64,000 nt of DNA, from contig CM055909.1 of NCBI GenBank assembly GCA_029582155.1, positions 49,912,412 through 49,976,411 of the forward strand, written 5' to 3'. This DNA comes from Panopea generosa (Eukaryota; Mollusca; Bivalvia; Adapedonta; Hiatellidae). The notes under the pieces are model-generated. The model was not told where the DNA came from. It made no database searches and saw only the letters and a list, made by a program, of their open reading frames with translations. Every line of letters starts with the position of its first letter. Positions within the stretch are counted from its first letter, which is position 1. Shown piece by piece: positions 11,544 through 59,620 of this stretch. A program made the position numbers and the translations under genes.

Positions 11544-12467
11544 GTAAGTTAACTTTTAATACTTTTTAACGTTTTAATTTCATTTTTAGCTCGAATTTTT
11601 TAAAAAAATGGAGCTGTTGGTTTTTAAATGTTTTAGGCATGCTCATATATCTCAGTAATCATACAAGAAAGAAACATAAGATGAGTTTTCACTACCATAA
11701 CGGGGACTCAAAAGGCCCAATATCTAAGCAGAGGTACTATAATTAATTAAATAATAAATACAAACAAAAGAGTATGAGATAATAAAAGAAGAAAAATTCA
11801 ATAAATCAATGAAAAAAGTAAGAATCAATGAAAAATAAGTGAAAACTGGTCGTTTGTTGACCGGGGTAAATAATAAAGAAAGGCAATAAATGTCAAAGGT
11901 CAAGTCGCAAAAGGAACCGGAAACTGATTTGTAGCTTCTACCTAAAACGCTTATTGTGTACAAATATCTACAAAAATACACAGCATATTTATATCTTAAA
12001 ATTAATTAACATAATATTATCTGTTTAATGACATGCCCTTTAAGTTTTATATAACACTTTTTCGTTTTAAACTTTATTGCTTTTTCACGTTATTTTTATC
12101 ATTTATTTGTTCAGTAAATAATAAGAGAATATACAATTTGAAAATACTGTTAGTTGAATTACGCCATGATGAAAAACCGATACATGTTACTATTTATATT
12201 AATAAAGTAAAACCGTTTAAATATGTAATTAAATATAAATCTGGTCTTTATATATTTAAAAATATATCATAAAAATTATATTTATTTCACTTTAACTTAT
12301 ATCGCATGTTTGTTTTTACTTTTAGCAACGAAATATAATTTTTGCCTGTAGCGACGTTTTGTGTTACTTTTAACAACGCAAATGTTTCTACCTTTAACGA
12401 CGTTCGTTTTATACAACTATCTACCGCTTAAGTGGTCAATTGTTCAAATTATTTATCCAAGGAAAAT

Positions 12468-13741
12468 CAGTAACTACTAGTCATACTGGGTTATAGATAC
12501 TGTCTCAGTAACTACTAGTCATACTGGGTTTTAGATACTGTTTCAGTAACTACTAGTCATTCTGGGTTATGAATACTGTCTCAGTAACTACTAGACATAC
12601 TGGGTTATAGATTCTGTCTCAGTAACTACTAGTCATACTGGGTTATAGATACTGTCTCAGTAACTACTAGTCATACTGGTTTTTAGATACTGTTTCAGTA
12701 ACTACTAGTCATTCTGGGTTATGAATACTGTCTCAGTAACTACTAGACATACTGGGTTATAGATACTGTCTCAGTAACTACTAATCATTCTGGGTTATAT
12801 ATACTGTCTCAGTAACTACTAGTCATACTGGGTTATAGATACTGTCTCAGTAACTACTAGTCATTCTGGGTTATAGATACTGTCTCAGTAACTACTAGAC
12901 ATACTGGGTTATAGATACTGTCTCAGTAACTACTAGACATACTGGATTTTAGATACTGTCTCAGTAACTACTAGTCATTCTGGGTTATAGATACTGTCTC
13001 AGTAACTACTAGACATACTGGGTTATAGATACTGTCTCAGTAACTACTAGTCATTATGGGATATAGATACTGTCTCAGTAACTACTAGTCATACTGGGTT
13101 ATATATACTGTCTCAGTAACTACTAGTCATTCTGGGTTATATATACTGTCTCAGTAACTACTAGTCATACTGGGTTATAGATACTGTCTCAGTAACTACT
13201 AGTCATTCTGGGTTATATATACTGTCTCAGTAACTACTAGTCATACTGGGTTATATATACTGTCTCAGTAACTACTAGTCATTCTGGGTTATAGATACTG
13301 TCTCAGTAACTACTAGTCATTCTGGGTTATATATACTGTCTCAGTAACTACTAGTCATACTGGGTTATATATACTGTCTCAGTAACTACTAGTCATTCTG
13401 GGTTATATATATACTGTCTCAGTAACTACTAGTCATACTGGGTTATAGATACTGTCTCAGTAACTACTAGTCATACTGGGTTATAGATACTGTCTCAGTA
13501 ACTACTAGTCATACTGGGTTATAGATACAGTCTCAGTAACTACTAGTCATACTGGGTTATATTTACTGTCTCAGTAGCTACTAGTCATACTGGGTTATAG
13601 ATACTGTCTCAGTAACTACTAGTCATTCTGGGTTATAGATACTGTCTCAGTAACTACTAGTCATACTGGGTTATAGAAACTGTCTCAGTAACTACTAGTC
13701 ATTCTGGGTTATAGATACTGTTTCAGTAACTACAAATCATA
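12468..13741 (+). repeat. 38-base minisatellite, ~33 copies, in intron 1 of the cysteine-rich gene
   Basis: The unit begins CAGTAACTACTAGTCATACT and continues GGGTTATAGATACTGTCT. Variants differ mainly at TCATACT/TCATTCT, CTAGTC/CTAGAC and TATAGA/TATATA and are intermixed, indicating repeated local duplications. No open frame of note runs through it. Confidence 0.95.
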
Positions 13742-13759
13742 CTTCAATGAAAGTCACAT

Positions 13760-16612: not shown

Positions 16613-16927
16613 CTATTCGTTTTTCAATAAAAGGTATTGATTATGTAATCTGATCACTATCATTTTGTATGTCGATGGTATGAGAATATAATACATGTTT
16701 AAAAAAACCAACCACATGTGTGATACGAGTCGTTTCTTCAGATGAATGCAGTTATACAATGGGTACACTGTAATGAATAGCTCGGTTGTCTGTCGGTTTG
16801 AGTTAACAATGGTTTGTATAATTATAAATATTTAATTTATAATTTACGTTCTTACCGTGTGACCATAACCACATGCTGTGTTAACTGAAACGATTATTTT
16901 GATAACACTAAACTTTCTCTATTGAAG

Positions 16928-18844
16928 GATCTGACAACTGCCTGTAATGATAGTCAATGTCCGCCACACAAACCATATTGTTCTGACATTGGTTGTTTAC
17001 ATCATTGTCCAGATACTTTCTACATCAATGGAACAACGTGTGTCCCAGAATGCGGTGATATGGTTGTTGTTAACCACCAAACATGCAAATCTGCCTGTCC
17101 TGAAGAATTTAAGTTCATCAGAGAAAACATCAAAACTATTGGAAGAGAAATCTATATTGAGAAAGAATGTATACTTCAATGCTATTTATATGAATATGAA
17201 TACAACGGATTTTGTTTGCGGGAATGTCCACGTAATGCTACGTTCTTAGATGGAAACACGTGTTTTGAAAATTGTCCTGCTGAAAAGAATATTTACGACA
17301 ATTTCACAACCTGGGGTATACAAATTAATTACACTCGCTGCGTAGCTAATTGCCAGTATAAATTCGTTGAAAATGGTAATTGCGTTTCTACTTGTGCGGA
17401 CCATAAAGTAATATTTAATCAATCGTGTGTTGACCAGTGTCCTAATTCCTACCCTTATATATCGGACCAGACCTGCGTTGATACCTGTCCACAAAGTTCA
17501 ATCCATTTTCAAAACGGAACCTGCTACAAACTTTGTCCGTCAGAAAAACCATTTTATTGGAATAATTCGTGTATTCACACATGCCCAGACAACTTCGCAA
17601 TAACAACATATCAGAATGGAGTTTTACACTGTGTAAATGCATGTTCAGATGATCTTTATTTGCTTAACAAAAGCTGTGTGCATACGTGCCCTCCACACAC
17701 GTTTGTTTACGATATTACATGTGTAGCAGTGTGTCCCAAAACCAAGCCGCTTATATATAAGGAAACGATAACGATAATGAAATGTCGAGTTGACTGTCCA
17801 CCAGACATGTATGTAAATAACGGAACATGCGAACACAGTTGTCCAGAATCGTTACTTACATTTAATAAAACGTGTGTACACCAATGTCCATTGTCCCATG
17901 CTCTAATCGAACCAAAACAAATTACAAAATCCATCGGATGGAAGTATGTGCGTAAATCTATAAAAGAATGTGTTGCTAAGTGTGCCACTCAACACGTTTT
18001 ATATAACACCACGTGCATTGATAAATGTCCCGATAACTACAACTACATCTGGAATGGAACGTGTAAAACAGAAAATTGCAAAACCGCATATCGCTATAAT
18101 ACAACTGCTGGAATCAACTGTACCGAGACGTGTCCTGATGGAAGGTATTTGGATGCAAATAAAAACACATGTGTCGAAACGTGCCAAGATAACAATGTGG
18201 TATACAATAAATCATGTGTAGCGAGCTGTCCACATGATACTTCATATATACTACAAAGGAACAATAAAGGACACTGTGTTAAGTCTTGTTATATGTATAT
18301 AGATGAACGTAAATGCGTAAGTTACTGTCCACCAGAACGAAAGTACCATTATAATAAAACGTGTGTGTCGCAATGTCCTGAGGCGGGGCAAATATTAATA
18401 TTCAGAAATAAGCACAATTTAGAATGTCTAACACGTTGCCCAGATAAGTATTTTGTCTACAATGACTCGTGCACTCGCAAGTGTCCTGACAATTTAACAC
18501 ACATCTATAATGGCAAATGCAGTGCTGCATGTCCTTCTTCCATTAGATTCAAAGAACAAGTTGATAGCCATGTTCATTGTTTGGCATCTTGCCCTGGCAA
18601 CAAACTTTTTCAAAAAGGACGGTGTATACCAGAAACTGATTGCAAAGCCATTGCCTTTGACGGACAATGCGTGTCTGAGTGTCCAAACACTCATTTTTTG
18701 CTATTTACGTGTCATCCAAACTGGGTTGCAATATTGCCATCTGTTGTTCTTTTTCTTTGTGCCGGAGCTGCCGTGTTTTCCACCAGACAGTCATTAATAA
18801 AGTATTTCCAAGTTGTCAAAATGATCGTTTTTCTATTGGTAAAG
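16928..18844 (+). CDS. Cysteine-rich type I membrane receptor-like protein, exon 2 (ectodomain and membrane span)
   Basis: This is the main 639-codon exon. About thirty short cysteine modules follow one another, each reading roughly N-x-S/T-C-V-x-x-C-P followed by 12-30 residues, as in furin-like / growth-factor-receptor cysteine-rich repeats. Very many N-x-S/T sites indicate an extracellular, glycosylated protein. At the C-terminal end NWVAILPSVVLFLCAGAAVF is a membrane span followed by basic residues (RQSLIKYFQVVK). The exon begins after an AAG acceptor in phase 0 and ends at AAG/GTAAAT in phase 0. With exons 1 and 3 the protein is about 729 residues: signal peptide, ~600-residue ectodomain, one span, ~95-residue cytoplasmic part. 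No named ligand-binding domain is recognised; the function (recognition or adhesion receptor) is inference. An apparent TTG start at 16922 lies in the intron. Confidence 0.85.
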
Positions 18845-18980
18845 GTAAATATGACATAAATTTTATTATGATATTTGGCATTAACTACAGTTAAGTGTTT
18901 AAAAATATATTAAATGAGCTAATGATGAAATAAAATGGAGATTTCTTTTTAAAATACATTCACGATTGTAGTCTTTTATT

Positions 18981-20145: not shown

Positions 20146-21087
20146 CCATCACTTCTGAATATGTAGGGAAGTAGTCATTGACTTACAGGGTGTGTCTAAG
20201 TACAGGTTAAGATCCAGATCTTTAAATATATTTTATACAAGTATCAGGTAGAAAATTAGAATTAGAAAATATAACTCCATTAATGTAACTAAACAAAATG
20301 TTTATTTAAGGCTTATTTTTTTTAAATTGTTTTTTTTTTTTTTGCTATTAAATTATCACTTAAGTGTTTAATTGTATTTTGGGCCAGCGACCGATATTAC
20401 TGAATACACATTGCCTATGTCTATGATAACCACCTAGCGACTTAGTGAAATCAAAAAAAATTAAAAAAAAAATTTCAACAACTTTTCTAAGTAATTTTTA
20501 AACATGTTTTGATACCATGTTTATGTTTTAATTAATTTATTGATGTATACAATGTTAGATATTTCCTTAGTCCGTGTGGTTCTGGCTAAGAATAGAATCA
20601 CTGTCGATCTCCGTAGAGTGGTAGGAATCCTCTAAATGGGTGTCCTGTTCATTTCATCATTTTATGTCGTGTTCATTATTGTGGTTAAATTACCAACCCC
20701 TGTGTGTTTCCAGGGTGACATATAAGTGATGACAAGAGGATCGTTCACTGTGGCTCACGCATGTCGTAAGAAGCGACAATTCTGCAGTTTTGCAGGTATC
20801 AAGGTTCTTGGTTCATTCCGCATATTCATTTGTTGATGCTTTTTTTAGCTGTATGTTAATTTGTTGGGATTTTTTGCATGTAGAGTGAACCTGGAATTTT
20901 CCATCTTGGTGGCGTCGAATAACCTATAATGTTTTGGTACGCCGTAAAACCCCTTTCATTCATTCAAATATTTTCTTGTATTTCTTGTCAAAGATGTATT
21001 TTTTTTGGTTTGGTGCCCCCGTTAACCAGAGTTATGTTTCCCAATAATGCCTATTCCAAACCGATAGTCCCTGTTGTCACTACGTAT
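20146..21087. other. Spacer downstream of the cysteine-rich gene
   Basis: No gene recognised. Poly-T near 20328-20343 and poly-A near 20453-20471. The stretch 20700-20900 (GGATCGTTCACTGTGGCTCA, CGCATGTCGTAAGAAGCGAC) looks like a piece of an interspersed repeat because of its short palindromic blocks, but no second copy is in the window. Confidence 0.4.
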
Positions 21088-21596
21088 CATACTGGCATGT
21101 TATGTGATGTCATACTGGCATGTCATGTGATGTCATACTGGCATGTTATGTGATGTCATACTGGCATGTTATGTGATGTCATACTGGCATGTTATGTGAT
21201 GTCATACTGGCATGTCATGTGATGTCATACTGGCATGTTATGTGATGTCATACTGGCATGTCATGTGATGTCATACTTGCATGTCATGTGATGCCATACT
21301 GGCATGTCATGTGATGTCGTACTGGCATGTTATGTTATGTCTTACTTGCATGTCATGTCATGTCATACTGGCATGTCATGTGATGTCGTACTGGCATGTC
21401 ATGTGATGTCGTACTGGTATGTTATGTTATGTCTTACTGGCATGTCAAGTGATGTCATACTGGCATGTCATGTGATGTCATACTGGCATGTCATCAGATG
21501 TCATACTGGCATGTCATGTGAAGTCATACTGGCATGTTAAGTGATGTTATACTGGCATGTTATGTTATGTCATACTGACATGTCATCAGATGTCAT
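21088..21596 (+). repeat. 23-base minisatellite, ~22 copies
   Basis: The unit is CATACTGGCATGTYATGTGA plus TGT. The main variant changes are GTCATG/GTTATG and GATGTCAT/GATGTCGT. The unit length is not a multiple of three; open frames inside are accidental. Confidence 0.95.
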
Positions 21597-22021
21597 AATA
21601 TTGTTATTTTAAAACTTCTCTCCTGATGCAGGAAATGTTAAGTCGAAACGCATTGGAAGTTAAGTTTGTCTTTTCATTTAATAATTTGAATGATAATGTC
21701 TTATCTGTGTCATATTGTGTATGGTCCTGATCTAAAGCAGTCCTCATCTGTGATCCATGCTTTGGTGGAGTTGTCCCTTGAATGCTATGTCTTCTGTTGT
21801 TTATTTATTATTTATTTATGAACGTGGGAACGTTTCAAATATGTATAGTTGATTTTCAGTTTTACAATAAGAAAATGTCACTCCTGAGAGTCAAACTCAC
21901 AGATGCCTGAATACGAAAATCGTTTTAAAACGCCCAAAGCCCAATGACAGACCAACTAAAACACGTGCACATCTTTTGACAGCTTCCGTTTACTGATTAT
22001 ATTTAATTTCAATTAATAGAA

Positions 22022-23087: not shown

Positions 23088-26000
23088 CTGCATATATATG
23101 GAGTTGTACAATGTTTATATATATGGAGTTTTATTGCGTATATATGGAATTACTGCATATATATGAGGTTTCATATCGTAGATGTGGAGTTGGACCGCGT
23201 ATATACGGAGTTGTACCGCGTATATAAGGAGTTGGATCATGTATATTTGGAGTTGCACTGTGCATATGGAGTTACACTGCGAATATATTGAGTTGCACCG
23301 CGTATATGTGGAATTGCACTGCTTTTATGTGGTATTCCACCGCGTATATGTGGAGTGGCACCGCATATATGTGGAGTTTCACCGCGTATATGTATAGTTT
23401 CAATGCGTATATATGGTGTTATAACACAATAATATAAAGTTGCACCCCGTACATATGGAGTTGCACCGCGTATATATGGAGTTGCACATCGTATATATGG
23501 AGTTGCACCACATACATATGGAGTTGCACTGCATACATATGGGGTTGCATTGCGTATATATAGAGTTTCACTGTGTATATATGGTGTTGTAACACATATA
23601 CATGGAGTTGCACTGGGTAAATATGGAGTTGGGCCGCGTATATATGGAGTTGTAACACGTATATATGATGTTGCACCTCGTACATATGGAGTTGCACCGC
23701 ATACATAGGGGTTGTACCGCGTATATATAGAATTGTATTGCGTATTTATGAATTTGTATTGCTTATATGTGGAGTTGCACTGTGTAAATGTAGAGTTGTA
23801 CTGCGAATATATGGAGATGTACTGAGTATATGTGATGTTGAACTGCGTATATGTGGTGTTGTTCTGCGTTTACATGGAGCTGCACCGCGTATATATGGAG
23901 TTGATCCACGTATATATGGAGTTGTACTGCGTATATGAGGAGTTGGACCACGTATATATGGAGTCGCACCGCGTATATATGGAGTTGCACCATGTATATA
24001 TGATGTTGCACCATGGATTGTGGAGTTGGACCACGTATATGCGAAGTTGCACCACGTATATATGGAGTAACACTGCGTATATATGATGTTGCAACGCATA
24101 GATGTGGAGTTGGACCGCATATATGTGGAGTTGTACCGCGTATATAAGGAGTCGGACCGCGTATATATGGAGTTGCACCATGTATATATGATGTTGCACC
24201 ATGGATTGTGGAGTTGGACCGCGTATATGCGAAGTTGCACCACGTATATATGGAGTTACACTGCGTATATATGATGTTGCAACGCATAGATGTGGAGTTA
24301 GACCGCATATATGTGGAGTTGTACCGCGTATATAAGGAGTCGGACTGCGTATATATGGAGTTTCACCGGGTATATATGATGTTGCACCATATAGATGTGG
24401 AGTTGCACCGCATATATATGGTATTGTACTGCGTATATATGGAGTTGAACCGCTCATATATGATGTTGCACTGCGTAAATGTGGAGTTGGACCGCGCATA
24501 TATGGAGTTGTACCGCATATATAAGTAGTTGGACTGTGTATATATATGGAGTTGCACTGTGTATATGGAGTAACACTGCAAATATATGGTATTACACTGC
24601 ATAAATGTGGAGTTGCACCGCATATACGTGGAGTTGCACCGCATGTATGTGGAGTTGCACTGCGTAAATATGGTGTTAAAACGCGTATACATGGAGTTGC
24701 ACCCTATACATATGGAGTTGCACCACGTACATATGGAGTTGCACATCGTATACATGGAGTTGCACCACATACATATGGGGTTGAACTGCGTATATGTGGA
24801 GTTTCACCGTGTATACATGGTGTTGTAACGCATATACATGGAGTTGCACCACGTATATATGAAGTTGCACAACGTTTATATGAAGTTGTACCACATATAA
24901 AAAGAATTGGACTGCGTGTATATGGAGTTGCACCATGTAGATGTGGAGTTGCACCTCGTACATATGGAGTTGAACCGCGTACATAAGGAGTTGTACCACG
25001 TATATATAGAGTTGTACTGCGTATATATTAAGTTGTACTGTTTATATGTGGAGTTGCACTTTGTAAATGTGGAGTTTTACTGCGAATATATGGAGTTGCA
25101 CTGCATATATGTGGAGTTGCACCACGTATATGTGGTGTTGTACAGCATATTTATGCAGATGCACCGCGCATATGTGGAGTTGCATCGCGTATATACAGAG
25201 TTGCACTGCGAATATGTGGTGTTGTAATGCATATACATTGAGTTGCACTGCATATATATGCAGTTGCACCGCGTATATATTGAGTTGGAATGCATACATA
25301 TTGTGTTGTACCGGGTATATAAGGAGTTGGACTAAATATATATGGAGTTGCACCACGTATATATGGAGTTGCACTGCATATATATGGTGTTGCACCGCGT
25401 AGTAGTGGAGTTGTACTGCGTTTATAAGGAGTTGGACTGTGTATATATGGAGTTGCACCGCGTATATATGGAGTTGCACAGCATATATATGGAGTTGCAC
25501 CGCAGACATATGGGGTTGTAACACATATATATGGAGTTGCACCGCGTATATATGGGGTTGCACCGCAAACATATGGAGTTGCACTGCGTACATATGGAGT
25601 TGCACCGTAGACATATGGGGTTGTACTGCATATATATGGAATTGCACCACGTATATATGGAGTTGCACCGCGTATATATGATGTTGCACCACGTAGGTGT
25701 GGAGTTGCACCACGAATATGTGGAGTTGCACTGCGTATATATGTAGTTTCACCACGTATATATGGTGTTATAACAAGTATATATGGAGTTGCACCCTGTA
25801 CATATGGAGTATATGGAGTTGCACTGCATATATATGGAGTTGCACTGCATATATATGGAGTTGCACAGCGTATATATGGAGTTGCACCGCGTATATATGG
25901 AGTTGCACCATGTATATATGGAGTTGCACCGCGTATATATGGAGTTGCACCGCGTATATATCGAGTTGCACCGCACATATATGGAGTTGTACCGCGTATA

Positions 26001-26234
26001 TATGGAGTTGCTCTGCGTATATATGGAGTTGCACTGTGTGTATATATGGAGCCTATATATGGAGTTGCACCATGTATATATGGAGTTGCACCGCGTATAT
26101 ATCGAGTTGCACCGCATATATATATGGAGTTGCACCGCATATATATGGAGTTGCACCGCGTATATATGGAGTTACACTGCAAATATATGGAGTTGCACTG
26201 TGTGTATATATGGAGCCTATATATGGAGTTGTAC
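23088..26234 (+). repeat. 21-base minisatellite, ~150 copies, open in many frames
   Basis: The unit is GGAGTTGCACCGCGTATATA plus T. Because 21 is divisible by three, and few variants create stops, long open frames exist on both strands reading MELHRVY, GVAPRIY or WSCTAYI (plus) and YAVQLHI, IRGATPY or CNSIYTR (minus), up to 343 codons. They lack splice sites, conserved frame preference or any recognised domain, so I do not call a gene. The 3' part (25430-26200) is the most homogeneous and probably the youngest. Confidence 0.95.
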
Positions 26235-36513: not shown

Positions 36514-36663
36514 CTAAAATTCACAACATGAATTCAGTTTCAGTGCTATTCATTACTCGTCCGTCCGTGAGTCTGTTCGCCCTTACGCAAACGTATTTAA
36601 GTAAAAAAAGTATGCACTGCATTTTAAGTGAACTTCTGGTTGGTTTTCCTGTTTTATGAATTC

Positions 36664-36897
36664 CTGTACAAGTGCACCAGGTTGATTCGCATGTACAAGT
36701 GCACCAGGTTGATTCGCCTGTACAAGTGCACCAGGTTGATTCGCCTGTACAAGTGCACCAGGTTGATTCGCCTGTACAAGTGCACCAGGTTGATTCGCCT
36801 GTACAAGTGCACCAGGTTGATTCGCCTGTACAAGTGCACCAGATTGCTTCGCTTTTACGATTGTACCAGGTTGATTCACCTGTAGAAGTGCACCAGT
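36664..36897 (+). repeat. 27-base minisatellite, block 1 (~8-9 copies)
   Basis: The unit is GTACAAGTGCACCAGGTTGA plus TTCGCCT. The period is a multiple of three, so open frames run through it on both strands. Confidence 0.95.
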
Positions 36898-37134: not shown

Positions 37135-39668
37135 TCACACCAGGTTGCTTCGCCTGTACAAGTACACCAGGTTACATCGCCTGTACAAGTGCACCAGGTT
37201 ATATCGCCTGTACAAGTACACCAGGTTACATCGCCTGTACAAGTACACCAGGTTATATCGCCTGTACAAGTGCACCAGGTTATATCGCCTGTACAAGTAC
37301 ACCAGGTTATATCGCCTGTACAAATGCACCAGGTTATATCGCCTGTACAAGTGCACCAGGTTACATCGCCTGTACAATTACACCAGGTTACATCGCCTGT
37401 ACAAGTGCACCAGGTTATATCGCCTGTACAAGTGCACCAGGTTACATCGCCTGTACAAGTGCACCAGGTTATATCGCCTGTACAAGTGCACCAGGTTATA
37501 TCGCCTGTACAAGTAGACCAGGTTACATCGCCTGTACAAGTGCACCAGGTTATATCGCCTGTACAAGTAGACCAGGTTACATCGCCTGTACAAGTGCACC
37601 AGGTTATATCGCCTGTACAAGTGCACCAGGTTACATCGCCTGTACAAGTGCACCAGGTTACATCGCCTGTACAAGTGCACCAGGTTATATCGCCTGTACA
37701 AGTAGACCAGGTTACATCGCCTGTACAAGTGCACCAGGTTATATCGCCTGTACAAGTGCACCAGGTTACATCGCCTGTACAAGTGCACCAGGTTACATCG
37801 CCTGTACAAGTGCACCAGGTTACATCGCCTGTACAAGTGCACCAGGTCACATCGCCTGTACAAGTGCACCAGGTTATATCGCCTATACAAGTACACCAGG
37901 TTATATCGCCGTGCACCAGGTTACATCGCCTGTACAAGTGCACCAGGTTACATCGCCTGTACAAGTGCACCAGGTTATATCGCCGTGCACCAGGTTACAT
38001 CGCCTGTACAAGTGCACCAGGTTACATCGCCTGTACAAGTAGACCAGGTTATATCACCTGTACACATGCATTACCTGTACAAGTGCACCAGGTTACATCG
38101 CCTGTACTTATGACCAGGTTGCTTCACCTGTACAAGCGCACCAGGTTACTATGCCTGTACAAGTGTACCAGGTTCCTTCACCTGTACACGTGCACCAGGT
38201 TACTATGCCTGTACAAGTGTACCAGGTTCCTTCACCTGTACACGTGCACCAGGTTACTATGCCTGTACAAGTGTACCAGGTTCCTTCACCTGTACACGTG
38301 CAACTAGCTGCTGCGCCTGTACAAGTTCACCAGGTTGATTCGACTGTACAAATGCACCAGTGCACCAGGTTACATCGCTTGTACAAGTAGACCAGGTTAT
38401 ATCGCCTGTACACGTGCATCGCCTGTACAAGTGCACCAGGTTACATCGCCAGTACAAGTGCACCAGGTTATATCGCCTGTACAAGTGCACCAGGTTATAT
38501 CGCCTGTAATAGTGCACCAGGTTACATCGCCTGTACAAGTGCACCAGGTTACATCGCCTGTACAAGTGCACCAGGTTACATCGCCAGTACAAGTGCACCA
38601 GGTTATATCGCCTGTACAAGTGCACCAGGTTATATCGCCTGTACAAGTGCACCAGGTTACATCGCCTGTACAATTACACCAGGTTACATCGCCTGTACAA
38701 GTGCACCAGGTTACATCGCCTGTACAAGTAGACCAGGTTATATCGCCTGTACACGTGCATTGCCTGTACAAGTGCACCAGGTTACATCGCCTGTACTAAT
38801 GACCAGGTTGCTTCACCTGTACAAGTGCACCAGGCTGCTTCGCCATTACAAGTGCACGAGGCTGCTTCGCCTGTACTAGTGCGTCAGACTGCTTCGCCTG
38901 TAATAGTGCATCAGACTGCTTTGACTGTACAAGTGTACCAGGTTCCTTCACCTGTACACGTGCACCAGGTTACTATGCCTGTACAAGTGTACCAGGTTCC
39001 TTCACCTGTACACGTGCAACAGGCTGCTTCGCCTGTTCAAGTGCACCAGGTTACTTCGCCTGTACAAGTGCAACAGGTTACTTCGCCTGTAAAAGTGCAA
39101 CAGGTTCCTTTACTTGTACACGTGCACCAGGCTGCTTCGCCTGAACAAGTGCACCATGCAGCTTCGCCTGTACTAGTGTGCCAGACTGCTTCGCCTGTAC
39201 TAGTGCACCAGACTGCTTCGCTTGTACAGGTGCATCAGGTTCCTTCACCTGTACACGTGCACCAGGTTACTTCGCCTGTATAAATGCACTAGGTTCCTTC
39301 ACCTGTACATGTGCACCAGGCTGATTCGACTGTACAAGTGCACCAGGTTGTTTCGCTTGTACAAGTGCACCAGTTTGCTTCGCATGTACAAGTGTACCAG
39401 GTTCCTTCGCCTGTACACGTGCACCAGGCTGCTTCGCCTGTACAAGTGCACCAGACTGCTTCGACTGTACAGGTGCACCAGGTTGCTTCGCCTGTTCAAG
39501 TGCACCAGACTGCTTCGACTGTACAAGTGCACCAGGTTGCTTCGCCTGTACTAGTGCACCAGGCTGCTTCGACTGAACAAGTGCGCCAGGCTGCTTCGAC
39601 TGTACAAGTGCGTCAGGCTGCTTCGACTGTACAAGTGCGCCAGGCTGCTTCGACTGTACAAGTGTGCA
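37135..39668 (+). repeat. 27-base minisatellite, block 2 (~90 copies)
   Basis: The unit is GTACAAGTGCACCAGGTTAC plus ATCGCCT, with ATA/ACA alternation at its centre. From about 38040 onwards variants shift to GCTTC, CCTTC and ACTTC centres and shorter units intervene. Open frames reach 372 codons (VHQVTSPVQ on plus, VTWCTCTGD on minus) but lie wholly in the intron between exons 3 and 4 of the C4-like gene. Confidence 0.95.
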
Positions 39669-40172: not shown

Positions 40173-40357
40173 GGTTAAATAGTAAAACGGCACCCCATAC
40201 AATTCGCCATCACATGAACATATTTAAGTAAATTATTATTTTACTAGTTCTGTTCAGATTCTTTCCGATCTTCCTCTTTCAATGAAACTGGATATGTCAT
40301 ATATAATATGCCATGTGTTGAAAATGTTGTTTAACACACTCTAACGATATAAATTAC

Positions 40358-41941: not shown

Positions 41942-43520
41942 ACTTTGCCTTGTCATATGCATGAATAGGTATAAAGTGGCGAAGTATGACACTTTGCCTC
42001 GTCATATGCATGAGTAGGTATAAAGTGGCGAAGTATGACACTTTGCCTCGTCATACGCATGAGTAGGTATAAAGTGGCAAAGTGTGACACTTTGCCTCGT
42101 CATACGCATGAGTAGGTATAAAGTGGCCAAGTATGACACTTTGCCTCGCCATACGCATGAGGAGGTATAAAGTGGCGAAGTATGACACTTTGCCTCGCCA
42201 TACGCATGAGTAGGTATAAAGTGGCGAAGTATGACACTTTGCCTTGTCATACGCATGAGTAGGTATAAAGTGGCGAAGTATGACACTTTGCCTCGTCATA
42301 CGCATGAGTAGGTATAAAGTGGCGAAGTATGACACTTTGCCTCGTCATACGCATGAGTAGGTATAAAGTGGCGAAGTATGACACTTTGCCTCGTCATATG
42401 CGAAGTATGACACCTTGCCTCGTCATATGCATGAGTAGGTATAAAGTGGCGAAGTATGACACTTTGCCTCGTCATATGCATGAGTAGGTATAAAGTGGTG
42501 AAGTATGACACTTTGCCTCGTCATATGCATGAGTAGGTATAAAGTGGCGAAGTATGACACTTTGCCTCGTCATATGCATGAGTAGGTATAAAGTGGTGAA
42601 GTATGACACTTTGCCTCGTCATATGCATGAGTAGGTATAAAGTGGCGAAGTATGACACTTTGCCTCGTCATATGCATGAGTAGGTACAAAGTGGTGAAGT
42701 ATGACACTTTGCCTCGTCATATGCACGAGTAGGTATAAAGTGGTAAAGTATGACACTTTGCCTCGCCATACGCATGAGGAGGTATAAAGTGGTAAAGTAT
42801 GACACTTTGCCTCGCCATACGCATGAGAAGGTATAAAGTGGCGAAGTATGACACTTTGCCTCGCCATACGCATGAGTAGGTATAAAGTGGCGAAGTATGA
42901 CACTTTGCCTTGTCATACGCATGAGTAGGTATAAAGTTGCGAAGTATGACACTTTGCCTCGTCATACGCATGAGTAGGTATAAAGTGGCGAAGTATGACA
43001 CTTTGCCTCGTCATACGCATGAGTAGGTATAAAGTGGCGAAGTATGACACTTTGCCTCGTCATACGCATGAGTAGGTATAAAGTGGCGAAGTATGACACT
43101 TTGCCTCGTCATATGCGAAGTATGACACCTTGCCTCGTCATATGCATGAGTAGGTATAAAGTGGCGAAGTATGACACTTTGCCTCGTCATATGCATGAGT
43201 AGGTATAAAGTGGTGAAGTATGACACTTTGCCTCGTCATATGCATGAGTAGGTATAAAGTGGCGAAGTATGACACTTTGCCTCGTCATATGCATGAGTAG
43301 GTACAAAGTGGTGAAGTATGACACTTTGCCTCGTCATATGCACGAGTAGGTATAAAGTGGTAAAGTATGACACTTTGTCTCGTCATATGCATGAGTAGGT
43401 ATAAAGTGGCGAAGTATGACACTTTGCCTCGCCATATGCATGAGTAGGTATAAAGTGGCGAAGTATGACACTTTGCCTCGTCATATGCATGAGTAGGTAT
43501 AAAGTGGCGAAGTATGACAC
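41942..43520 (+). repeat. 49-base minisatellite, ~32 copies, with a higher-order duplication
   Basis: The unit is ATGCATGAGTAGGTATAAAG, then TGGCGAAGTATGACACTTTG, then CCTCGTCAT. A deletion-bearing unit (CATATGCGAAGTATGACACC) occurs at about 42396 and again 715 bases later, with matching neighbours, so a ~0.7-kb block was duplicated as a whole. It lies between exons 1 and 2 of the C4-like gene. Repeated minus-strand frames of 71-94 codons are accidental. Confidence 0.95.
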
Positions 43521-45341: not shown

Positions 45342-45992
45342 CTATATAGAATTTAAACCATTTTTTTTTTTACAATATGCTATGTTTATTTTGTCATATG
45401 GGAGTTGATTTATAGGCATAGTACCACTATTGGGAACAGAAAAAATACTTCCGTGTGTTAGTATCATAATGGCAGTTGAGCATTGTTTCTTCTTATTTAA
45501 ACATGGATTTTCCTTAGTTAAATGCTCTTTTTTATTTGAATGGCATTTTTGGTGTATTTTGAACAGTTCGAAAGCATGGTCATGTATGAATGATGCTTGG
45601 AAATTGGGATATGTGAGTGTAAATGGTACGTGATTTCTGGAGTCTACTTTCACTTTGTCAACAGTATACATACTGAACAGAAAAAATATTTTACGTGATT
45701 CATGACCCCTACTGTTCTTATCATATTTTGGTAGTACAGAGAATGACAAACAACAAAATATAAGTTTCATTTGTGTCTCTCTATTAATGACATTGTTATG
45801 TATTATATCATAAAGAACAATAATCAATAGGAGCTTACACCTTTTATTATAAAAATGTATTCTAGTTCGGTAGCGATACAAATATATGTCCGTTTCCTGG
45901 GTATAATCAGAAATGACTGTTGTGAGTTCAAGCAGTATTGTTCTAAAATGACTGTTGTTGTTGTTTTTAATGGGGTTTAAGGACCTTTTCAA
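45342..45992 (-). other. Unexplained 216-codon open frame
   Basis: In AT-rich DNA a frame this long is unlikely by chance. The translation is basic, low in glycine and has no recognised domain; IMILTHGSIFSVPNSGT near the C-terminal end is its most protein-like part. There is no clear exon border pair. It could be a decayed gene or a repeat. Function unknown. Confidence 0.25.
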
Positions 45993-46205
45993 CGCATTTC
46001 AGGTTATATATAGCATATTTAGTTTTATTGGTAAAGGAAAATCTGACACTGAATCAGACTGAGTACATGTAGAACCACCGTCCTTCTGCAAGTAACTGAT
46101 ACACTTTCTCACATAAAGTTCTTGGAACGAGCGGGACTCGAACCTACTACCCTAGCGTTAAGGGGTAAATGATCATGAGACGGCGCAACGGAAGACCCTT
46201 CGTTC
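45955..46205 (-). mobile_element. SINE family A, minus-strand copy
   Basis: On the minus strand the head is followed by GGTTCGAGTCCCGCTCG, then TTGCAGAAGGACGGTGGTTC and ATGCTATATATAACCTGAAA, the family A order. Confidence 0.7.
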
Positions 46206-47060: not shown

Positions 47061-47227
47061 AATAGTAAAGATTTGTATTGGCGATTGCAAGCAGCTTGTA
47101 AAGTTCTTAAATGTGACGTGGGATGGCCAAGACCCGTTTGTCTATGCAACCGTTTTAATAGTACATGCATAACTACATACAAATAAAACAAAAAGTGTGT
47201 CGAGCTTTAAACAAAGTTTGCTGGTAC

Positions 47228-47963
47228 CCGACTCATCCAGTTGCAACCAGAAACCAGAATCTTGCAGGCATATTCGGATAGCATCGTTCTTCACGGCGGC
47301 GAATTCATTCCAGTTGTAATATAATCCATTGTTTTTGTTCGAAATGTATGGACGTTTCTCATTATTATTGTATAATTCATATTCCGCCTTGTTCAGCTCG
47401 ACCTGCTCGCAGAAATACAATTTTGTAAGGTCCACAATCTTGAGACTGCCACTGTTGAATCGAGAAACAGGCTTCTTGTAGATGTCTTTTGCAACTTGAT
47501 CCTTGCTGTTCTGTCTTCGTGTACCATTAATTCCACTGGTAAATGTCGACGTTAGATTTGTGTAAAAACTATTAAACTCAACCGCCCACATTTTGGGAAT
47601 CATGTTTTTCACTTCATTTAAAAGCCGGGAATGGGCAATATTTGGTGATGCCTTTTCCAAAGCAACGCCGAACTGCTGGACGGTATCCTTGTTGTCGTTC
47701 ACGTAGTATAACTGTATAGATGTTACTGTCCACGTGTTGGGCCACGGCGATATCAACCACACAATGCTTTGTTGAGAAGTACTAGGCACTGGGCGATTCC
47801 AATTTTTCATTAAACTTGGGTGGAAGAATTGGGTATCTGGAGTGAGTACTAGACTGATAGTATATATGTCAGCAACACTGTTCATTGTCGGGTACTCGCA
47901 AGTTCCATTTGGGTAACGGACTTTCCCTGTAGGACAGAACACCGTACGGCAATTGCTCTCATT
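47228..47963 (-). CDS. Somatomedin-B adhesion-GPCR-like receptor, exon 3 (pre-transmembrane ectodomain)
   Basis: After acceptor GATTTATATATTTCAG the exon encodes NESNCRTVFCPTGKVRYPNG then TCEYP, a cysteine block followed by ~150 residues of mixed ectodomain. It then encodes LYFCEQVELNKAEYEL and ends near NDAIRICLQDSG. The C-R-x-V-x-C-P-x-G-K ... NGTC block and the later hxFCxQVEL ... VRIC block are the order I know from large molluscan adhesion-GPCR-like receptors, just ahead of the seven-helix domain. The open frame continues to a stop at 47142; a phase-1 donor GTACCA at 47227 is a guess, and without it the protein would end in a hydrophobic tail (LDTLFVLFVCSYACTI) at about 600 residues. Confidence 0.65.
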
Positions 47964-48182
47964 CTGAAATATATAAATCTAAATTGTATTTAATTCAGTA
48001 TATACTAGCATATATATAAAGTACAGTGTTTGTTTATTATAGTGAATATATTGAAAGAATCACCAGTACTGGGCTTATGACACACCTTTGTGCTATGCAT
48101 TTTCTTCCCGAAAGTTATCATTGCCAGGTGTCCGGCTGTTAGACATTCGGTACCCCTCAATTTAACTAGCTGTTGATTGAGC

Positions 48183-50085: not shown

Positions 50086-50485
50086 CTTTTTATACGTACA
50101 GTGTATTAACATTAATATAATCAATCATTATTTTTAAAAATTTCACATGCGTTTCAACCTTGTTGACTCTCATTTATTAAAACAAGTTGAATGTGAAAAT
50201 TTAGTAGTTTAGTTTTATTTTCTTCGTTATCAACTTTCTTTTGATTATACTTGGTAAAAGTTATTAATATGATTGATCTGTGTCGGTGTCTTTGAAAATA
50301 TTGTAAGCAAAGCGACAAACGTTAAATTTCGGTTGATGTTAAAACTTCTGGTTGAGTTCAAAGATTAAAATACTAAATATTATATGTCGGCTAAGTTAAA
50401 TATTACAGCATTTTCCCGGATAGTGTTAAAAACAGTAAATGTGTGACTGAGGGCATCTAACCAATAATGCAAACTGTTGTTTTTT
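48266..50485. other. Intron/spacer with low-complexity tracts
   Basis: No exon recognised. It holds the CGCGGTAATAGGTATACCGC palindromic stretch at 48833-48852, an AAACCCAAAGGTGTTTTTTG repeat near 49215-49310, a poly-C run at 49641-49657 and a long (TTA)n microsatellite at about 49978-50083. Confidence 0.5.
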
Positions 50486-50718
50486 TTCATAGTTTGAACG
50501 GCATTTAACGTCATTTTCAACATTTAACAGATTATATATGGCATGTCCTATTTAATTGGTGAAGGAAGACCTCAGAAAGAATCTGAGTAGAACCACCGAC
50601 CTTCCGCAAGCTACTGACAAACTTTTGTGAATAGAGTTGTGCTCGAACCTCAGCGGAGAGAGGAAAGTTGTCGTTAGACGACAGCGCTTAAACGATCCGG
50701 CCACGTAGGGCCTGCTTG
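50486..50718 (-). mobile_element. SINE family A, minus-strand copy abutting the 38-base satellite
   Basis: Read on minus: CTACGTGGCCGGATCGTTTA, AGCGCTGTCGTCTAACGAC, then GAGGTTCGAGCACAAC (B box), CTTGCGGAAGGTCGGTGGTT, CTACTCAGATTC and CATGCCATATATAATCTG. It aligns block for block with the copies at 40818 and 59990. Its 5' head is continuous with the first satellite unit. Confidence 0.8.
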
Positions 50719-53700
50719 TTTGTACATTAACGATCCGATCACGTAGGGCCTGCTTGTTTGTACATAAACGATCCTGCCACGTAGGGCCTGCTTGTTTGTA
50801 CATTAACGATCCGGCCACGGAGGGCCTGCTTGTTTGTACATAAACGATCCGACCACGTAGGGCCTGCTTGTTTGTACATTAACGATCCGACCACGTAGGG
50901 CCTGCTTGTTTGTACATTAACGATCCGACCACGGAGGGCCTGCTTGTTTGTACATAAACGATCCTGCCACGTAGGGCCTGCTTGTTTGTACATTAACGAT
51001 CCGGCCACGGAGGGCCTGCTTGTTTGTACATAAACGATCCGACCACGTAGGGCCTGCTTGTTTGTACATAAACGATCCGATCACGGAGGGCCTGCTTATT
51101 TATACATAAACGATCCGGCCACGGAGGGCCTGCTTGTTTGTACATAAACGATCCGACCACGGAGGGCCTGCTTGTTTGTACATTAACGATCCGGCCACGG
51201 AGGGCCTGCTTGTTTGTATATTAACGATCCGACCACGGAGGGCCTGCTTGTTTATACATAACCGATCCTGCCACGTAGGGCCTGCATATTTGTACATAAA
51301 CGATCCGACTACGGAGGGCCTGCTTGTTTGTACATTAACGATCCGGCCACGGAGGGCCTGCTTGTTTGTACATTAACGATCCGACCACGGAGGGCCTGCT
51401 TGTTTGTACATTAACGATCCGGCCACGTAGGGCCTGCTTGTTTGTACATTAACGATCCGACCACGGAGGGCCTGCTTGTTTGTACATTAACGATCCGGCC
51501 ACGTAGGGCCTGCTTGTTTGAACATTAACGATCCGACCACGGAGGGCCTGCTTGTTTGTACATAAACGATCCGATCACGGAGGGCCTGCTTGTTTGTACA
51601 TTAACGATCCGATCACGGAGGCCTGCTTATTTGTACATTAACGATCCGGCCACGTACGGCCTGCTTGTTTGTACATAAACGATCCGATCACGGAGGGCCT
51701 GCTTGTTTGTACATAAACGATCCGACCACGGAGGGCCTGCTTGTTTGTACATTAACGATCCGACCACGGAGGGCCTGCTTGTTAGTACATAAACGATCCG
51801 ACCACGGAGGGCCTGCTTGTTTGTACATAAACGATCCGATCACGGAGGGCCTGCTTGTTTGTACATAAACGATCCGGCCACGGAGGGCCTGCTTGTTTGT
51901 ACATAAACGATCCGATCACGGAGGGCCTGCTTGTTTGTACATAAACGATCCGATCACGGAGGGCATGCTTGTTTGTACATAAACGATCCGGCCACGTAGG
52001 GCCTGCTTGTTGTTACATAAACGATCCGGTCACGGAGGGCCTGCTTGTTTGTACATAAACGATCCGACCACGTAGGGCCTGCTTGTTTGTACATAAACGA
52101 TCCGGCCACGGAGGGCCTGCTTGTTTGTACATTAACGATCCGGCCAGATAGGGCCTGCTTGTTTGTACATAAACGATCCGGCGATGGAGGGCCTGCTTGT
52201 TTGTACATAAACGATTCGATTACGAAGGGTCTGCTTGTTTGTACATAAACGAACCGGCCACGGAGGGCATGCATGTGAATACATAAACGATCCAATCACG
52301 GAGGGCCTGCTTGTTTGTACATAAACGATCCGGACATGGAGTGTTTGTTTGTACATAAACGATCCGGCCACGGAGGGCCTGCTTGTTTGTACATAAACGA
52401 TCCGGCCACGGAGGGCCTGCTTGTTTGTACATAAACGATCCGATCACGAATGGTCTGCTTGTTTGTACATAAACGATCCGGCCACGGAGGGCATGCATGT
52501 GTATACATAAACGGTCCGATCATGGAGGGCCTGCTTGTTTGTACATAAACGATCCGACCACGTAGGGCCTGCTTGTTTGTACATAAACGACCCGGCCACG
52601 GAGGGCATGCATGTGTATACATAAACGATCCGATCACGGAGGGCCTGATTGTTTGTACATAAACGATCCGGACATGGAGGGCCTGCTTGTTTGTACATAA
52701 ATGATCCGGCCACGGAGGGCCTGCTTGTTTGTACATAAACAATCCGATCACGGAGGGCCTGCTTGGTTGTAAATAAACGATCCGGCCACGTAAGGCCTGC
52801 TTGTTTGTACATAAACGATCCGGCCACGGAGGGCCTGCTTGTTTGTACATAAACGATCCGACGGAGGGCCTGCTTGTTTGTACATTAACGATCCGACCAC
52901 GGAGGGCCTGCTTGTTTGTACATTAACGATCCGGCCACGTAGGGCCTGCTTGTTTGAACATTAACGATCCGACCACGGAGGGCCTGCTTGTTTGTACATA
53001 AACGATCCGATCACGGAGGGCCTGCTTGTTTGTACATTAACGATCCGACCACGGAGGGCCTGCTTATTTGTACATTAACGATCCGGCCATGTAGGGCCTG
53101 CTTGTTTGTACATAAACGATTCGATCACGGAGGGCCTGCTTGTTTGTACATAAACGATCCGATCACGGAGGGCCTGCTTGTTTGTACATTAACGATCCGA
53201 CCACGGAGGGCCTGCTTGTTAGTACATAAACGATCCGACCACGGAGGGCCTGCTTGTTTGTACATAAACGATCCGATCACGGAGGGCCTGCTTGTTTGTA
53301 CATAAACGATCCGGCCACGGAGGGCCTGCTTGGCCACGGAGGGCCTGCTTGTTTGTACATAAACGATCCGATCACGGAGGGCCTGCTTGTTTATACATAA
53401 ACGATCCGATCACAGAGGGCATGCTTGTTTGTACATAAACGATCCGGCCACGTAGGGCCTGCTTGTTGTTACATAAACGATCCGATCACGGAGGGCCTGC
53501 TTGTTTGTACATAAACGATCCGACCACGTAGGGCCTGCTTGTTTGTACATAAACGATCCGGCCACGGAGGGCCTGCTTGTTTGTACATTAACGATCCGGC
53601 CACATAGGGCCTGCTTGTTTGTACATAAACGATCCGGCCACGGAGGGCCTGCATGTTTGTACATAAACGATCCGACCACGGAGGGCCTGCTTGTTAGTAC

Positions 53701-54157
53701 ATAACCGATCCGGACATGGAGGGCCTGCATGTTTGTACATAAACGATCCGACCCAGAGGGCCTGCATGTTTGTACATAAACGATCCGACCACGAAGGACC
53801 TGCGTGTTTGTACATAAACGATTCGGACATTGAGGGCCTGCATATTTGTACATTAACGATCTGGCCACGGAGGGCCTGCATGTTTGTACATAAACGATCC
53901 GGTCATGGATAGCCTGCTTGTTTGCACATAAACGATCCACCCAGGGAGGGCCTGCTTGTTTGTACATAAACGATCCGGCCACTGAGGGCCTGCATGTTTA
54001 TTTATAAACGATCCGACCACGGCGGACATGCTTGTTTTTATATAAACGATCCAGCCGCGGAGGGCCTGCATGTACATAGTACATAAACGAACGGGCCTGC
54101 TTGTTTGTACGTTAACGATCCAGCCACTGAGGGACTTCATGTTAGTACATAAACGAT
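50690..54157 (+). repeat. 38-base satellite, ~90 copies, containing a SINE tRNA-head fragment
   Basis: The unit is GTAGGGCCTGCTTGTTTGTA then CATAAACGATCCGGCCAC. The reverse complement of its last part (GTGGCCGGATCGTTTA) is the A-box region of the adjacent family A SINE. Central units are homogeneous; units after 53700 decay. Segments around 51490-52110 recur at about 52930-53560. It lies in the intron between exons 2 and 3 of the GPCR-like gene. Open frames up to 190 codons are accidental. Confidence 0.95.
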
Positions 54158-54299
54158 TTAAATTTCAATAGTTTGCGCAAATGGTATTTTAATATAATTT
54201 GGCATGTCTCGGTTAATGTTTGGACATTTGCCGATGACATTGTTTTATAATTCAGCGGACGTTCAGTTTGACGTTGATATTTCATGAGTGTCAAGCTAG

Positions 54300-54715
54300 T
54301 AGGTAGTTGGCAGTTGGTAGTTGGCAGTTGGATATTCGAATAACCAACTACCGACCAATTCGATTCGTATTCGTTATCATAATGCAGATTAAATTTACAT
54401 ATTTTATTTATGTTTATATGTTTAAAAATATAACCAATTGAAAACTGATATATCTTAATTTGTAGTCCGAATCCCCAATTGACAGCTAATTGGTAGTTGG
54501 CGGTTTAGTTTTCAAGGAATCCTTTCAGGTCAATATACTCATAGTATTGAAGAAACAATGCGGCACTGGTGTTTTTTATTGTTATAAACTCTTTTTCTAA
54601 ATTAATTGATTTGTTAAAAAAATAAAAGCAGCGATTGAAAAAAAAAAGAATCCGAATCCTCAATAGGTAACTGGTCGGTAGTTGGTTATTTCAATATCAA
54701 ACTACAAACTACCTA
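54300..54715. mobile_element. MITE-like element with ~60-base inverted ends
   Basis: The left end TAGGTAGTTGGCAGTTGG ... ATAACCAACTACCGACCA and the reverse complement of the right end TAGGTAGTTTGTAGTTTGAT ... ATAACCAACTACCGACCA match, the left having an extra ~12 bases. The interior is AT-rich and non-coding. Confidence 0.65.
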
Positions 54716-54950
54716 CCAACTTAAAACTCATTGCCATTTCAATGTTTACCGGAAGTTTAAACGTTTACCGGAAGTTTAATAGATGTTTAACATTTTACGT
54801 TTAAGTTTTAACATTTAGCGAAATGTTTAAAAGTTATTGATTTAGACAGCAATTTGACAAGGTGTAATTGATACTTAACTATCGTTGAAAGCATCGTATT
54901 CTTTCGATGGCAGAATTATACCACCATATATGTCTTAACCAATCTCGTAC

Positions 54951-55714
54951 CCTGGTATTTCCTGCCATTTCACACGCAGAGGGTATGCGTTGATGATAAT
55001 TCTGTTTAACAAATACACTTTGCCATTCCGTTAAAAATCTGGTACTTATAAGAAACGAAAATTTTGATTTATCGTTAACAACACGGTCATTGTTAACACC
55101 TTCACAACGAGCCTCGCCCGCTTTAATCTTAGTGTTATCGTCATTACAAAAATGACAGAAATGGCTGAAAAATGTGCCCTTCTTATATGCAGTTAAAATT
55201 CCCTGTGCGCACAAAGTATTCTGTTCTGCAACAGAAGGTAGGTTATCGTCCTCAACATAACTGTAAGTCTTTTGGCATGCTTCTATTGAATTTGGAAAAC
55301 AACGCTCAGATTTGAGATATTCGGGACTTCCGGTATAATTAAAGTTGACTTCACACCCTGAAGAGTCAAAACTGACACCGTGACTATCACAGAGAATCGA
55401 TGCATTCCAATGAATTCCATCGTCGACTTTATGACACTCGGCACATTTGGAATTTTTGTATATTCGACCAGTAGATTTAGAAGAAATGGGATAGAGACTC
55501 CCCCACGGCGCAACTCGTTCATCTTCGCATGCCTTGGTATCACCATCTTCCGTAGGGCACCGAACAATCATGTAGTAGGAGCGGCTGTTATTTTCCGATG
55601 GATTTGTTTCAGAGTATATACATTTATGCGAACTTCTATTAACAACTTTGTTAACGTCTTGCTCTTGGAAACAACAATTCTGGGTCATTCCACATGTGTT
55701 CTCCCACGAACATT
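54951..55714 (-). CDS. Somatomedin-B adhesion-GPCR-like receptor, exon 2 (ectodomain)
   Basis: After acceptor TTTTATATTTCTAG the exon starts in phase 1. With exon 1 it gives PCCGECSWENTCGMTQNCCF, the C-C-G-x-C-S ... C ... C-C spacing of a somatomedin-B-like module. About 220 further residues carry paired cysteines, several N-glycosylation sites and a CHFC motif; the region is extracellular. The open frame runs to a stop at 54879, but the last 24 residues look intronic. Using AGG/GTACGA as donor at 54950, the exon is 764 bases, ends in phase 0 and fits exon 3 exactly. An additional small exon between them cannot be excluded. Confidence 0.75.
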
Positions 55715-55739
55715 CTAGAAATATAAAACTTTAACAAGA

Positions 55740-58679: not shown

Positions 58680-59620
58680 AACTTTCAAAAACACTTGGCT
58701 CAATTCATCAGCAGGACATGACGACACGTTACGCGTAAGACTCACACCCGTACTCCAAAAGTCAAGGTCACACTTTGAATTTGTTTGACTGTGTGAGATT
58801 TCGTGTCCGGCCTGTAACTTTGTCATGCTTAGGTGGATTTTATAAATACGTGTTATAGTTGTTGTTGTATTATGGTGTTTAGCGTCGCTTTCAACAATTT
58901 TTCAGTCATATCGCGACGGCGTCTTCTTGAGACAGTATTCTAAGCGCTGTCACACTGGAGTATTATGCCGCAGACACATGGTATGATACCCCACCCAGTC
59001 ACATTATACTGACACCGGGCCAACCAGACAAAGAACTCTCCTCTTAATGCTGAGCGTCAAGCGAGGAAGCTCTTAGTTCCATTTTTAAAGTCTTTGGTAT
59101 GACCCGGCCGGGGATTGAACCGACGACCTTCCGCTTGCGAGGCGGACGCTCTATCACTAGACCACGCTGCGGTCATACGTGTTAAAAATGATCAACATAA
59201 TATGATGTCGCGCGTAGCACCCAGAATCAAACTTCAAAGGTCAAGGTCACATGTTAACATGTTGAGTGTGTGAGATTTTATATCCGGTCTGTAGCGTTGT
59301 CATACATGAATGAATTTTAAAACAACTTGGCTCAATTGATCAACATGACACGAAGAAGTGTCGCGTGTAAGACCCAGAATATTTCTAAAAAGGTCAAAAT
59401 CACAATTTCTTATATGGAGGAATTTAACTAGGACCAATTGATCATGATGACATGTCGCACGTAAGACCCAGATTCATACCTTAAAGGTCAAGGTCACACT
59501 TTGAGTTTGTTTGACAACACTTTGAGTCTGTTTGAGATTTAAAATCCGGTCTGTAACTTTGCAATACATGGATGGATTTCAAAAAACACAATTAATCAAC
59601 ATGACATGGCGACAGTTTAG
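58680..59620 (+). repeat. Tandem ~140-170-base repeat (AAGGTCAAGGTCAC family), interrupted by a SINE
   Basis: About four units each carry CTTGGCTCAATT, ATCAACATGACA, CGCGTAAGACCCAGA-like text, AAAGGTCAAGGTCACA and TTTGAGTTTGTTTGA. The SINE at 58856-59174 splits one unit. Confidence 0.75.
58856..59174 (-). mobile_element. SINE family C, full-length copy with target-site duplication
   Basis: ATACGTGTTA flanks it on both sides (58846-58855 and 59175-59184). The minus-strand head TGACCGCAGCGTGGTCTAGT, GATAGAGCGTCCGCCTCGCA and B box GTCGGTTCAATCCCCGG is clearly tRNA-derived; the body matches 34953-35270. Confidence 0.85.

What the first reader, a model, noticed from the sequence alone, without database searches (positions are those of the whole stretch)
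50486..54157. A 3.5-kb satellite that appears to have grown out of the tRNA head of a SINE
Seen: a minus-strand SINE (50486-50718) whose head reads CTACGTGGCCGGATCGTTTA is directly continuous with the 38-base array, and every array unit contains that same head segment (GTGGCCGGATCGTTTA on minus) joined to GTACAAACAAGCAGGCCCT-like flank. The same SINE at 40818 and 59990 has no array. Inference: replication slippage or unequal exchange amplified the SINE 5' end plus adjacent host sequence into a satellite, leaving ~90 A-box-like copies in a receptor-gene intron.
Basis: partly seen in the sequence, partly recalled or inferred. Interest (0 to 1): 0.7.

Follow-up and report, generated by a model that had tools for sequence, protein, structure and literature searches.

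The report
Minisatellite grown from a SINE head
A short mobile element in this genome appears to have seeded a 3.5-kb tandem repeat from its own front end, a known route to new repeats, seen here with the likely parent element still attached.

Summary
A 38-bp unit repeats about 91 times at 50689-54157. The array shares bases with a minus-strand SINE: the SINE's first 24 nt (50712-50689) are also the last 24 nt of the last unit. In that register 0 of 20,000 shuffled units match two independent SINE heads as well; with free placement 3 of 1000 do. The unit's other 14 bases were found in this window only inside the array. This supports local amplification of SINE head plus neighbouring sequence.

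Three points fail or stay open. The 'A boxes' match no better than shuffled units, and the units lack a B box. By unit size this is a minisatellite. Whether it is the founder locus is untested: the genome search did not complete in eight tries.

New details: the far edge is decayed and the SINE edge is not; blocks inside the array are duplicated.

SINE-derived satellites with a SINE at one end are published (PMC10702118), as is a SINE-related satellite in a limpet (PMC11121367). Verdict: real, a new member of a known kind, modest interest.

The parts
50500..50712 (-). Likely parent SINE copy: tRNA-like head, central domain, 3' tail; an A-rich stretch continues to about 50480
   Evidence: nhmmer with a model from two other copies only, E 1.7e-32; 28-29% different from those copies
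50689..50712 (-). 24-nt segment that is both the SINE 5' end and the end of the last array unit
   Evidence: Unit table, SINE start, register test 0 of 20,000 shuffles
50713..50726 (-). 14-nt non-SINE part of the unit (SINE-proximal copy); inferred 5' flank of the insertion
   Evidence: These 14 nt plus 2: 85 matches with up to 3 mismatches in the window, all inside the array; 0.81 expected by chance
50689..54157 (-). 38-bp minisatellite array, about 91 units
   Evidence: TRF, wrap-around unit alignment
50745..51069 (-). Five-unit (190-bp) duplication at the SINE end: 135 bp repeated exactly, starting at 50745 and 50935
   Evidence: Exact-repeat scan
51264..52196 (-). First copy of a ~930-bp (about 25-unit) block duplicated inside the array
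   Evidence: 903 of 953 aligned columns identical to 52703-53652; score 757 against at most 692 in 63 other block pairs
52703..53652 (-). Second copy of the duplicated block
   Evidence: exact stretches of 184, 169 and 117 bp at spacings 1436-1456
53664..54157 (-). Decayed far edge of the array, ending in an 8-nt partial unit (54150-54157)
   Evidence: 3.5 rare changes per unit (10 gapless units) against 0.31 (13 units) in the SINE-side seventh; outermost 8 gapless units against first 8, p = 0.0006

Best explanation
A tRNA-headed SINE inserted here on the minus strand. Later a 38-bp stretch crossing its 5' boundary (14 bp of adjoining sequence plus the first 24 nt of the SINE head) was duplicated in tandem. 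It then expanded to about 91 copies by slippage and unequal exchange, leaving the rest of the SINE attached at one end. Shown: the shared, in-register head; the 14 bp found only in the array within this window; a decayed far edge and an undecayed SINE edge; block duplications. Inferred: that the 14 bp is the original flank; that the first duplication used the 8-nt word ATCGTTTA, present at both ends; that turnover reaches up to the SINE-side end; that the array has no function of its own.
For: The last unit's head is the SINE's only head. In-register similarity of the unit to two independent SINE heads: 0 of 20,000 shuffles. At unit column 21, 60 of 84 units have C, the base of both independent SINE heads, while the attached SINE has A, shared by 21 units; this suits copies taken from the SINE followed by exchange with it. 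Four SINE copies differ by 26-34% from each other, while units differ by 10.6% on average and 18% within the 11 far-edge units; the array looks younger, though exchange also keeps units alike. Decay at the far edge only. Block duplications. Neither of the two other copies with a clear head carries an array.
Against: No target-site duplication could be fixed: the best flank match (score 24) is reached by 159 of 5000 shuffles and 49 of 5000 real pairs, so the 14 bp cannot be proved to be flank. Free-placement similarity is only moderate, 3 of 1000. The last 10 nt of the array-side head match each independent head at only 6 of 10 positions (counted from the heads printed). Far-edge units are not closer to the SINE family than the rest, rho -0.10, p 0.37. 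The SINE-side units are not significantly cleaner than the interior (p 0.10), and a middle stretch is also diverged (2.17 rare changes per unit). The 8-nt word is partly circular: any array with a fractional copy shows it. No other locus could be examined.
Confidence: 0.75

Rival explanations
1. The array travelled: a few head-plus-14-bp units formed at another locus or in a SINE source copy, were retrotransposed or copied here with the SINE, and then expanded.
For: A weak flank similarity would, if it were a real target-site duplication, enclose array and SINE together. Published SINE-derived satellites occur at many loci within one genome (PMC10702118, discussion).
Against: That similarity is not convincing. 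The other SINE copies in this window have no such 5' extension: the unit start was found only in the array.
Confidence: 0.15
2. The array was there first and the SINE inserted into or beside it.
For: SINEs do insert into satellite monomers: RUDI splits a DTHS3 monomer in Donax trunculus (PMC5139131, passages).
Against: An inserted SINE would bring its own head next to an array unit. Here there is one head and it is both. No unit-like sequence lies on the SINE's other side, 50300-50688: 295 of 300 shuffles score as well. The array is less diverged than the SINE family, though homogenisation can also cause this.
Confidence: 0.04
3. The similarity between unit and SINE head is coincidental.
For: With free placement 3 of 1000 shuffled units match as well.
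Against: In the register set by the SINE body, 0 of 20,000 shuffles reach the observed match, and array and SINE overlap by the same 24 bases.
Confidence: 0.02
4. The units were selected and kept as Pol III A-box or factor-binding sites acting on the host gene.
For: The unit does derive from the A-box end of a tRNA-like head.
Against: The A-box match is no better than in shuffles and there is no B box in the units. The attached SINE keeps 10 of 11 B-box bases, but its A box scores 10 of 12, as most units do.
Confidence: 0.04

Closest known systems
SINE-derived satellites (sSats) of squamate reptiles (PMC10702118: abstract, passages and discussion seen)
   Same: Tandem units made of part of a tRNA-headed SINE; mostly a longer terminal unit continuing to the SINE's end at one side; some units carry extra sequence of unknown origin (44 nt in one whiptail variant); partial homogenisation.
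   Different: The main snake unit (67 nt) covers the 3' part of the head with the B box plus body; here it is the 5' end of the head plus 14 bp outside the SINE. Those occur at many loci; here one locus is known. A different animal group, by inference only.
PcH-sat of the limpet Patella caerulea (PMC11121367: abstract and discussion seen)
   Same: A tandem repeat in a mollusc that shares sequence with a SINE; its SINE segment lacks both promoter boxes.
   Different: 179-bp unit with 118 bp similar to Nin-SINE, about 10% of the genome and pericentromeric; no parent copy attached to an array is described in the parts I saw.
Hydromantes Hy/Pol III and Xenopus laevis Satellite 1 (table rows in PMC9659126, passages; original papers not seen)
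   Same: Listed as tandem repeats from the tRNA-related region of SINE-like elements.
   Different: PMC10702118 judges the published SINE-satellite examples it examined inconclusive, among them a Xenopus repeat called OAX. In the present locus the SINE itself is attached.
Polar human minisatellites such as MS32 (recalled, no call)
   Same: The two ends of the array behave differently.
   Different: Here polarity is read from one sequence only, not from alleles.

Membership tests
SINE-derived satellite (sSat) | Unit contains part of an identifiable SINE | tested here: met
   24 of 38 bp; 0 of 20,000 shuffles in register, 3 of 1000 with free placement
SINE-derived satellite (sSat) | Terminal unit extends into the SINE up to its terminus | tested here: met
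   SINE 50712-50500 continues from the last unit 50689-50726
SINE-derived satellite (sSat) | Recurs at several loci in the genome | not testable with these tools
   The own-genome search did not complete
Minisatellite | Tandem unit of roughly 10-100 bp, array of 0.5 to tens of kb (recalled definition) | tested here: met
   38 bp x 91.2 copies at 50689-54157, 3469 bp
Classical satellite DNA | Long arrays in heterochromatin | tested here: inconclusive
   3.5 kb in a window with two ORFs that encode recognisable domains; chromosomal position unknown
tRNA-derived SINE (the parent) | tRNA-like head with A and B boxes | tested here: inconclusive
   Copy at 40822: tRNA covariance match 18.8 bits, below the gathering score of 29, E 0.074, with an insert where a long variable arm would be; B box 11 of 11, A box 11 of 12. 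Array-side copy: B box 10 of 11, A box 10 of 12
tRNA-derived SINE (the parent) | Dispersed copies sharing head, body and tail | tested here: met
   Model from two copies finds three further ones at E below 1e-14, at 46197-45969 (head truncated), 50712-50500 and 9450-9599
tRNA-derived SINE (the parent) | Flanking target-site duplication | tested here: inconclusive
   Best flank match reached by 159 of 5000 shuffles and 49 of 5000 real pairs
RUDI / V-SINE, MetaSINE, Nin-SINE | Family-specific central domain | not testable with these tools

The most novel reading that the evidence does not exclude
This is the founder locus of a SINE-seeded tandem repeat: one insertion created an 8-nt direct repeat across its own 5' boundary, and the array still turns over at the SINE end, so the full path from single insertion to array could be read from one locus.
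Probability: 0.3. Interest if true: 0.55.

Novelty: new member of a known kind. Interest (0 to 1): 0.33.

Why it matters
It is a clear single-locus case in which the unit boundary can be placed against the likely parent SINE: the repeat takes the 5' end of the tRNA-like head and crosses into sequence not seen in the other copies. That makes the first step of array birth (which boundary, which short repeat) testable by looking at the orthologous locus in relatives. It does not change how satellite origin from SINEs is understood.

Tried and rejected
Target-site duplication: the best match between the far flank and the SINE 3' end was scored and is not convincing (159 of 5000 shuffles, 49 of 5000 real pairs). 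A second, degraded SINE tail at the far flank: with three scoring schemes 309, 443 and 578 of 1000 shuffles score as well; rejected. Further decayed units beyond the far edge: 409, 63 and 169 of 500 shuffles for flanks of 40, 80 and 160 bp; rejected. Far-edge units nearer to the SINE family: no trend, rho -0.10, p 0.37; 12 of 52 rare head changes go to a base of the other SINEs where 6.7 to 7.8 are expected; not claimed. A-box function: rejected. Higher-order periodicity by lag alone: the best value, 0.152 at lag 38, lies below the largest of 300 shuffled orders, 0.163; the block duplications rest on exact stretches and the block alignment instead. Public collections: 0 exact matches for a 28-base stretch of the unit in viral contigs and genome contigs and 0 for a SINE core pattern in viral contigs; these collections hold viral and prokaryote sequence, so this says little. 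Host gene: of seven long ORFs scanned, two have Pfam matches and neither flanks the array; a repeat scan of one ORF found nothing and a sequence search against solved structures gave only two weak hits, E 0.07.

Full report
What is there. On the minus strand, 50689-54157 holds a 38-bp tandem repeat, 91.2 copies by Tandem Repeats Finder. A wrap-around alignment gives 93 rows: an 8-bp partial unit at the far (5') edge and 92 others, 84 of them gapless 38-mers; two of the other rows are pieces of one irregular stretch. The consensus on minus is a 14-nt part, TGTACAAACAAGCA, followed by a 24-nt part, GGCCCTCCGTGGTCGGATCGTTTA. The array is richer in G+C than the window, 51% against 37%.

The SINE. 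A profile built only from the copies at 40822 and 59990 returns eight hits at E up to 1: its two sources; three others below 1e-14, among them 50712-50500 on minus at 1.7e-32; and three weaker ones (4.5e-5, 0.013 and 0.079). The copy at 40822 matches the tRNA covariance model at 18.8 bits, below the gathering score of 29, with an insert where a long variable arm would lie, and has a perfect B box. I call the head tRNA-like on that basis; its resemblance to a class II tRNA such as tRNA-Leu is recalled, not tested. The array-side copy differs from the two model copies by 28-29%.

The junction. The SINE begins at 50712 and the last array unit spans 50689-50726. The unit's 24-nt part and the SINE's first 24 nt are therefore the same bases, and there is no second head. 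The unit head in its C form matches the independent heads at 18 and 17 of 24 positions (T form 17 and 16). No shuffle of 20,000 reaches the sum of 35 in that register, while with free placement 3 of 1000 reach 18. Five other array units of the window reach 15 or 16 of 24. The strength of the case lies in the register, not in raw similarity. The 14-nt part plus 2 nt occurs 85 times with up to 3 mismatches, all inside the array.

History of the array. Leaving out the four common polymorphic columns, rare changes average 3.5 per unit in the far seventh and 0.31 in the SINE-side seventh; a middle stretch (52175-52671) is also raised, at 2.17. The outermost eight gapless far units carry 2-6 each and the first eight at the SINE 0-1 (p 0.0006). 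The far edge differs from the interior (p 4e-5) but the SINE edge does not (p 0.10), and without the 11 gapless units beyond 53620 the trend with position is not significant (p 0.087). So the far edge is decayed and the SINE edge is not; a continuous gradient is not shown. A five-unit duplication with a 135-bp exact match lies at the SINE end. A ~930-bp block, 51264-52196, recurs at 52703-53652 with 903 of 953 columns identical, score 757 against at most 692 in 63 other pairs. I read these as marks of unequal exchange. At column 21, 60 of 84 units have the base of both independent SINE heads where the attached SINE has another; 21 units share the changed base, 11 of them among the 30 nearest the SINE. 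I read this as exchange between the SINE's own head and its neighbours.

Birth. At the far edge the array starts with ATCGTTTA followed by the 14-nt part; at the SINE edge the last ATCGTTTA is followed by the SINE body. If the edges are original, the founder had two copies of this 8-mer 38 bp apart across the SINE 5' boundary, a fitting substrate for a first slippage duplication. Such a pair occurs at 1 of 14,354 positions in three mostly unique stretches of the window. This is inference: any array with a fractional copy shows the same end pattern, and a decayed edge may not be original. No target-site duplication could be fixed.

Function. The 84 full-length units score 9-11 of 12 on a generic A box, as shuffled units do, and 7-8 of 11 on a B box, no better than shuffles. 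The attached SINE keeps 10 of 11 B-box bases; its A box scores 10 of 12, the same as the copy at 59990 and most units. There is no evidence that the copies are used. The two long minus-strand ORFs on either side, 54879-55730 and 47142-47978, have no Pfam match, so an intron is plausible but not shown.

Known relatives. Squamate SINE-derived satellites mostly have the same layout, a tandem part with a longer terminal unit running to the SINE's end, and some include sequence of unknown origin (PMC10702118; abstract, passages and discussion). The limpet PcH-sat has 118 bp similar to Nin-SINE (PMC11121367; abstract and discussion). A review table lists two amphibian repeats from tRNA-related regions of SINE-like elements (PMC9659126; passages). 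A 2025 review names SINEs among the sources of satellites (PMC12692304; passages). I therefore call this a new member of a known kind. I did not come across this particular unit in print, but my eight paper searches were by topic, not by sequence. That the species is a mollusc is a guess from the look of the SINE and genes; it was not tested.

Limits. The own-genome search did not answer in eight tries. Every statement about 'founder' or 'only here' is limited to this 64-kb window.

Noticed in passing
window 12467-13743, 21087-21597, 23118-26215, 36663-36896 with 37138-39664, 41942-43520: The window holds several other minisatellites (units 38, 23, 21, 27 and 49 bp). The other 38-bp unit looks unrelated in sequence by eye. 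The two 27-bp arrays appear to share a unit, with about 240 bp between them.
   Followed up: no
window 54284-54731: A ~450-bp stretch just beyond the array's far edge with diverged inverted repeats (48 nt at 85%, 32 nt at 81% complementary), possibly a small inverted-repeat element.
   Followed up: no
window 59105-59166, minus strand: A tRNA-like sequence exactly at Rfam's gathering score (29 bits), not called by ARAGORN and weakly matched by the SINE model (59142-59085, E 0.079); perhaps the head of another SINE.
   Followed up: no
window 45969-46197 minus; 9450-9599 plus; 40248-40333 plus: Further copies or fragments of the same SINE family not mentioned in the finding (E 1.8e-40, 2.2e-15, 4.5e-5); the match of the first starts at model position 20, so the 5' part of its head is missing.
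   Followed up: partly
window 10465-11007 minus; 16889-18856 plus: A TIR-domain ORF and a 656-aa Furin-like cysteine-rich ORF (Pfam E 9.6e-20 and 9.7e-23).
   Followed up: no
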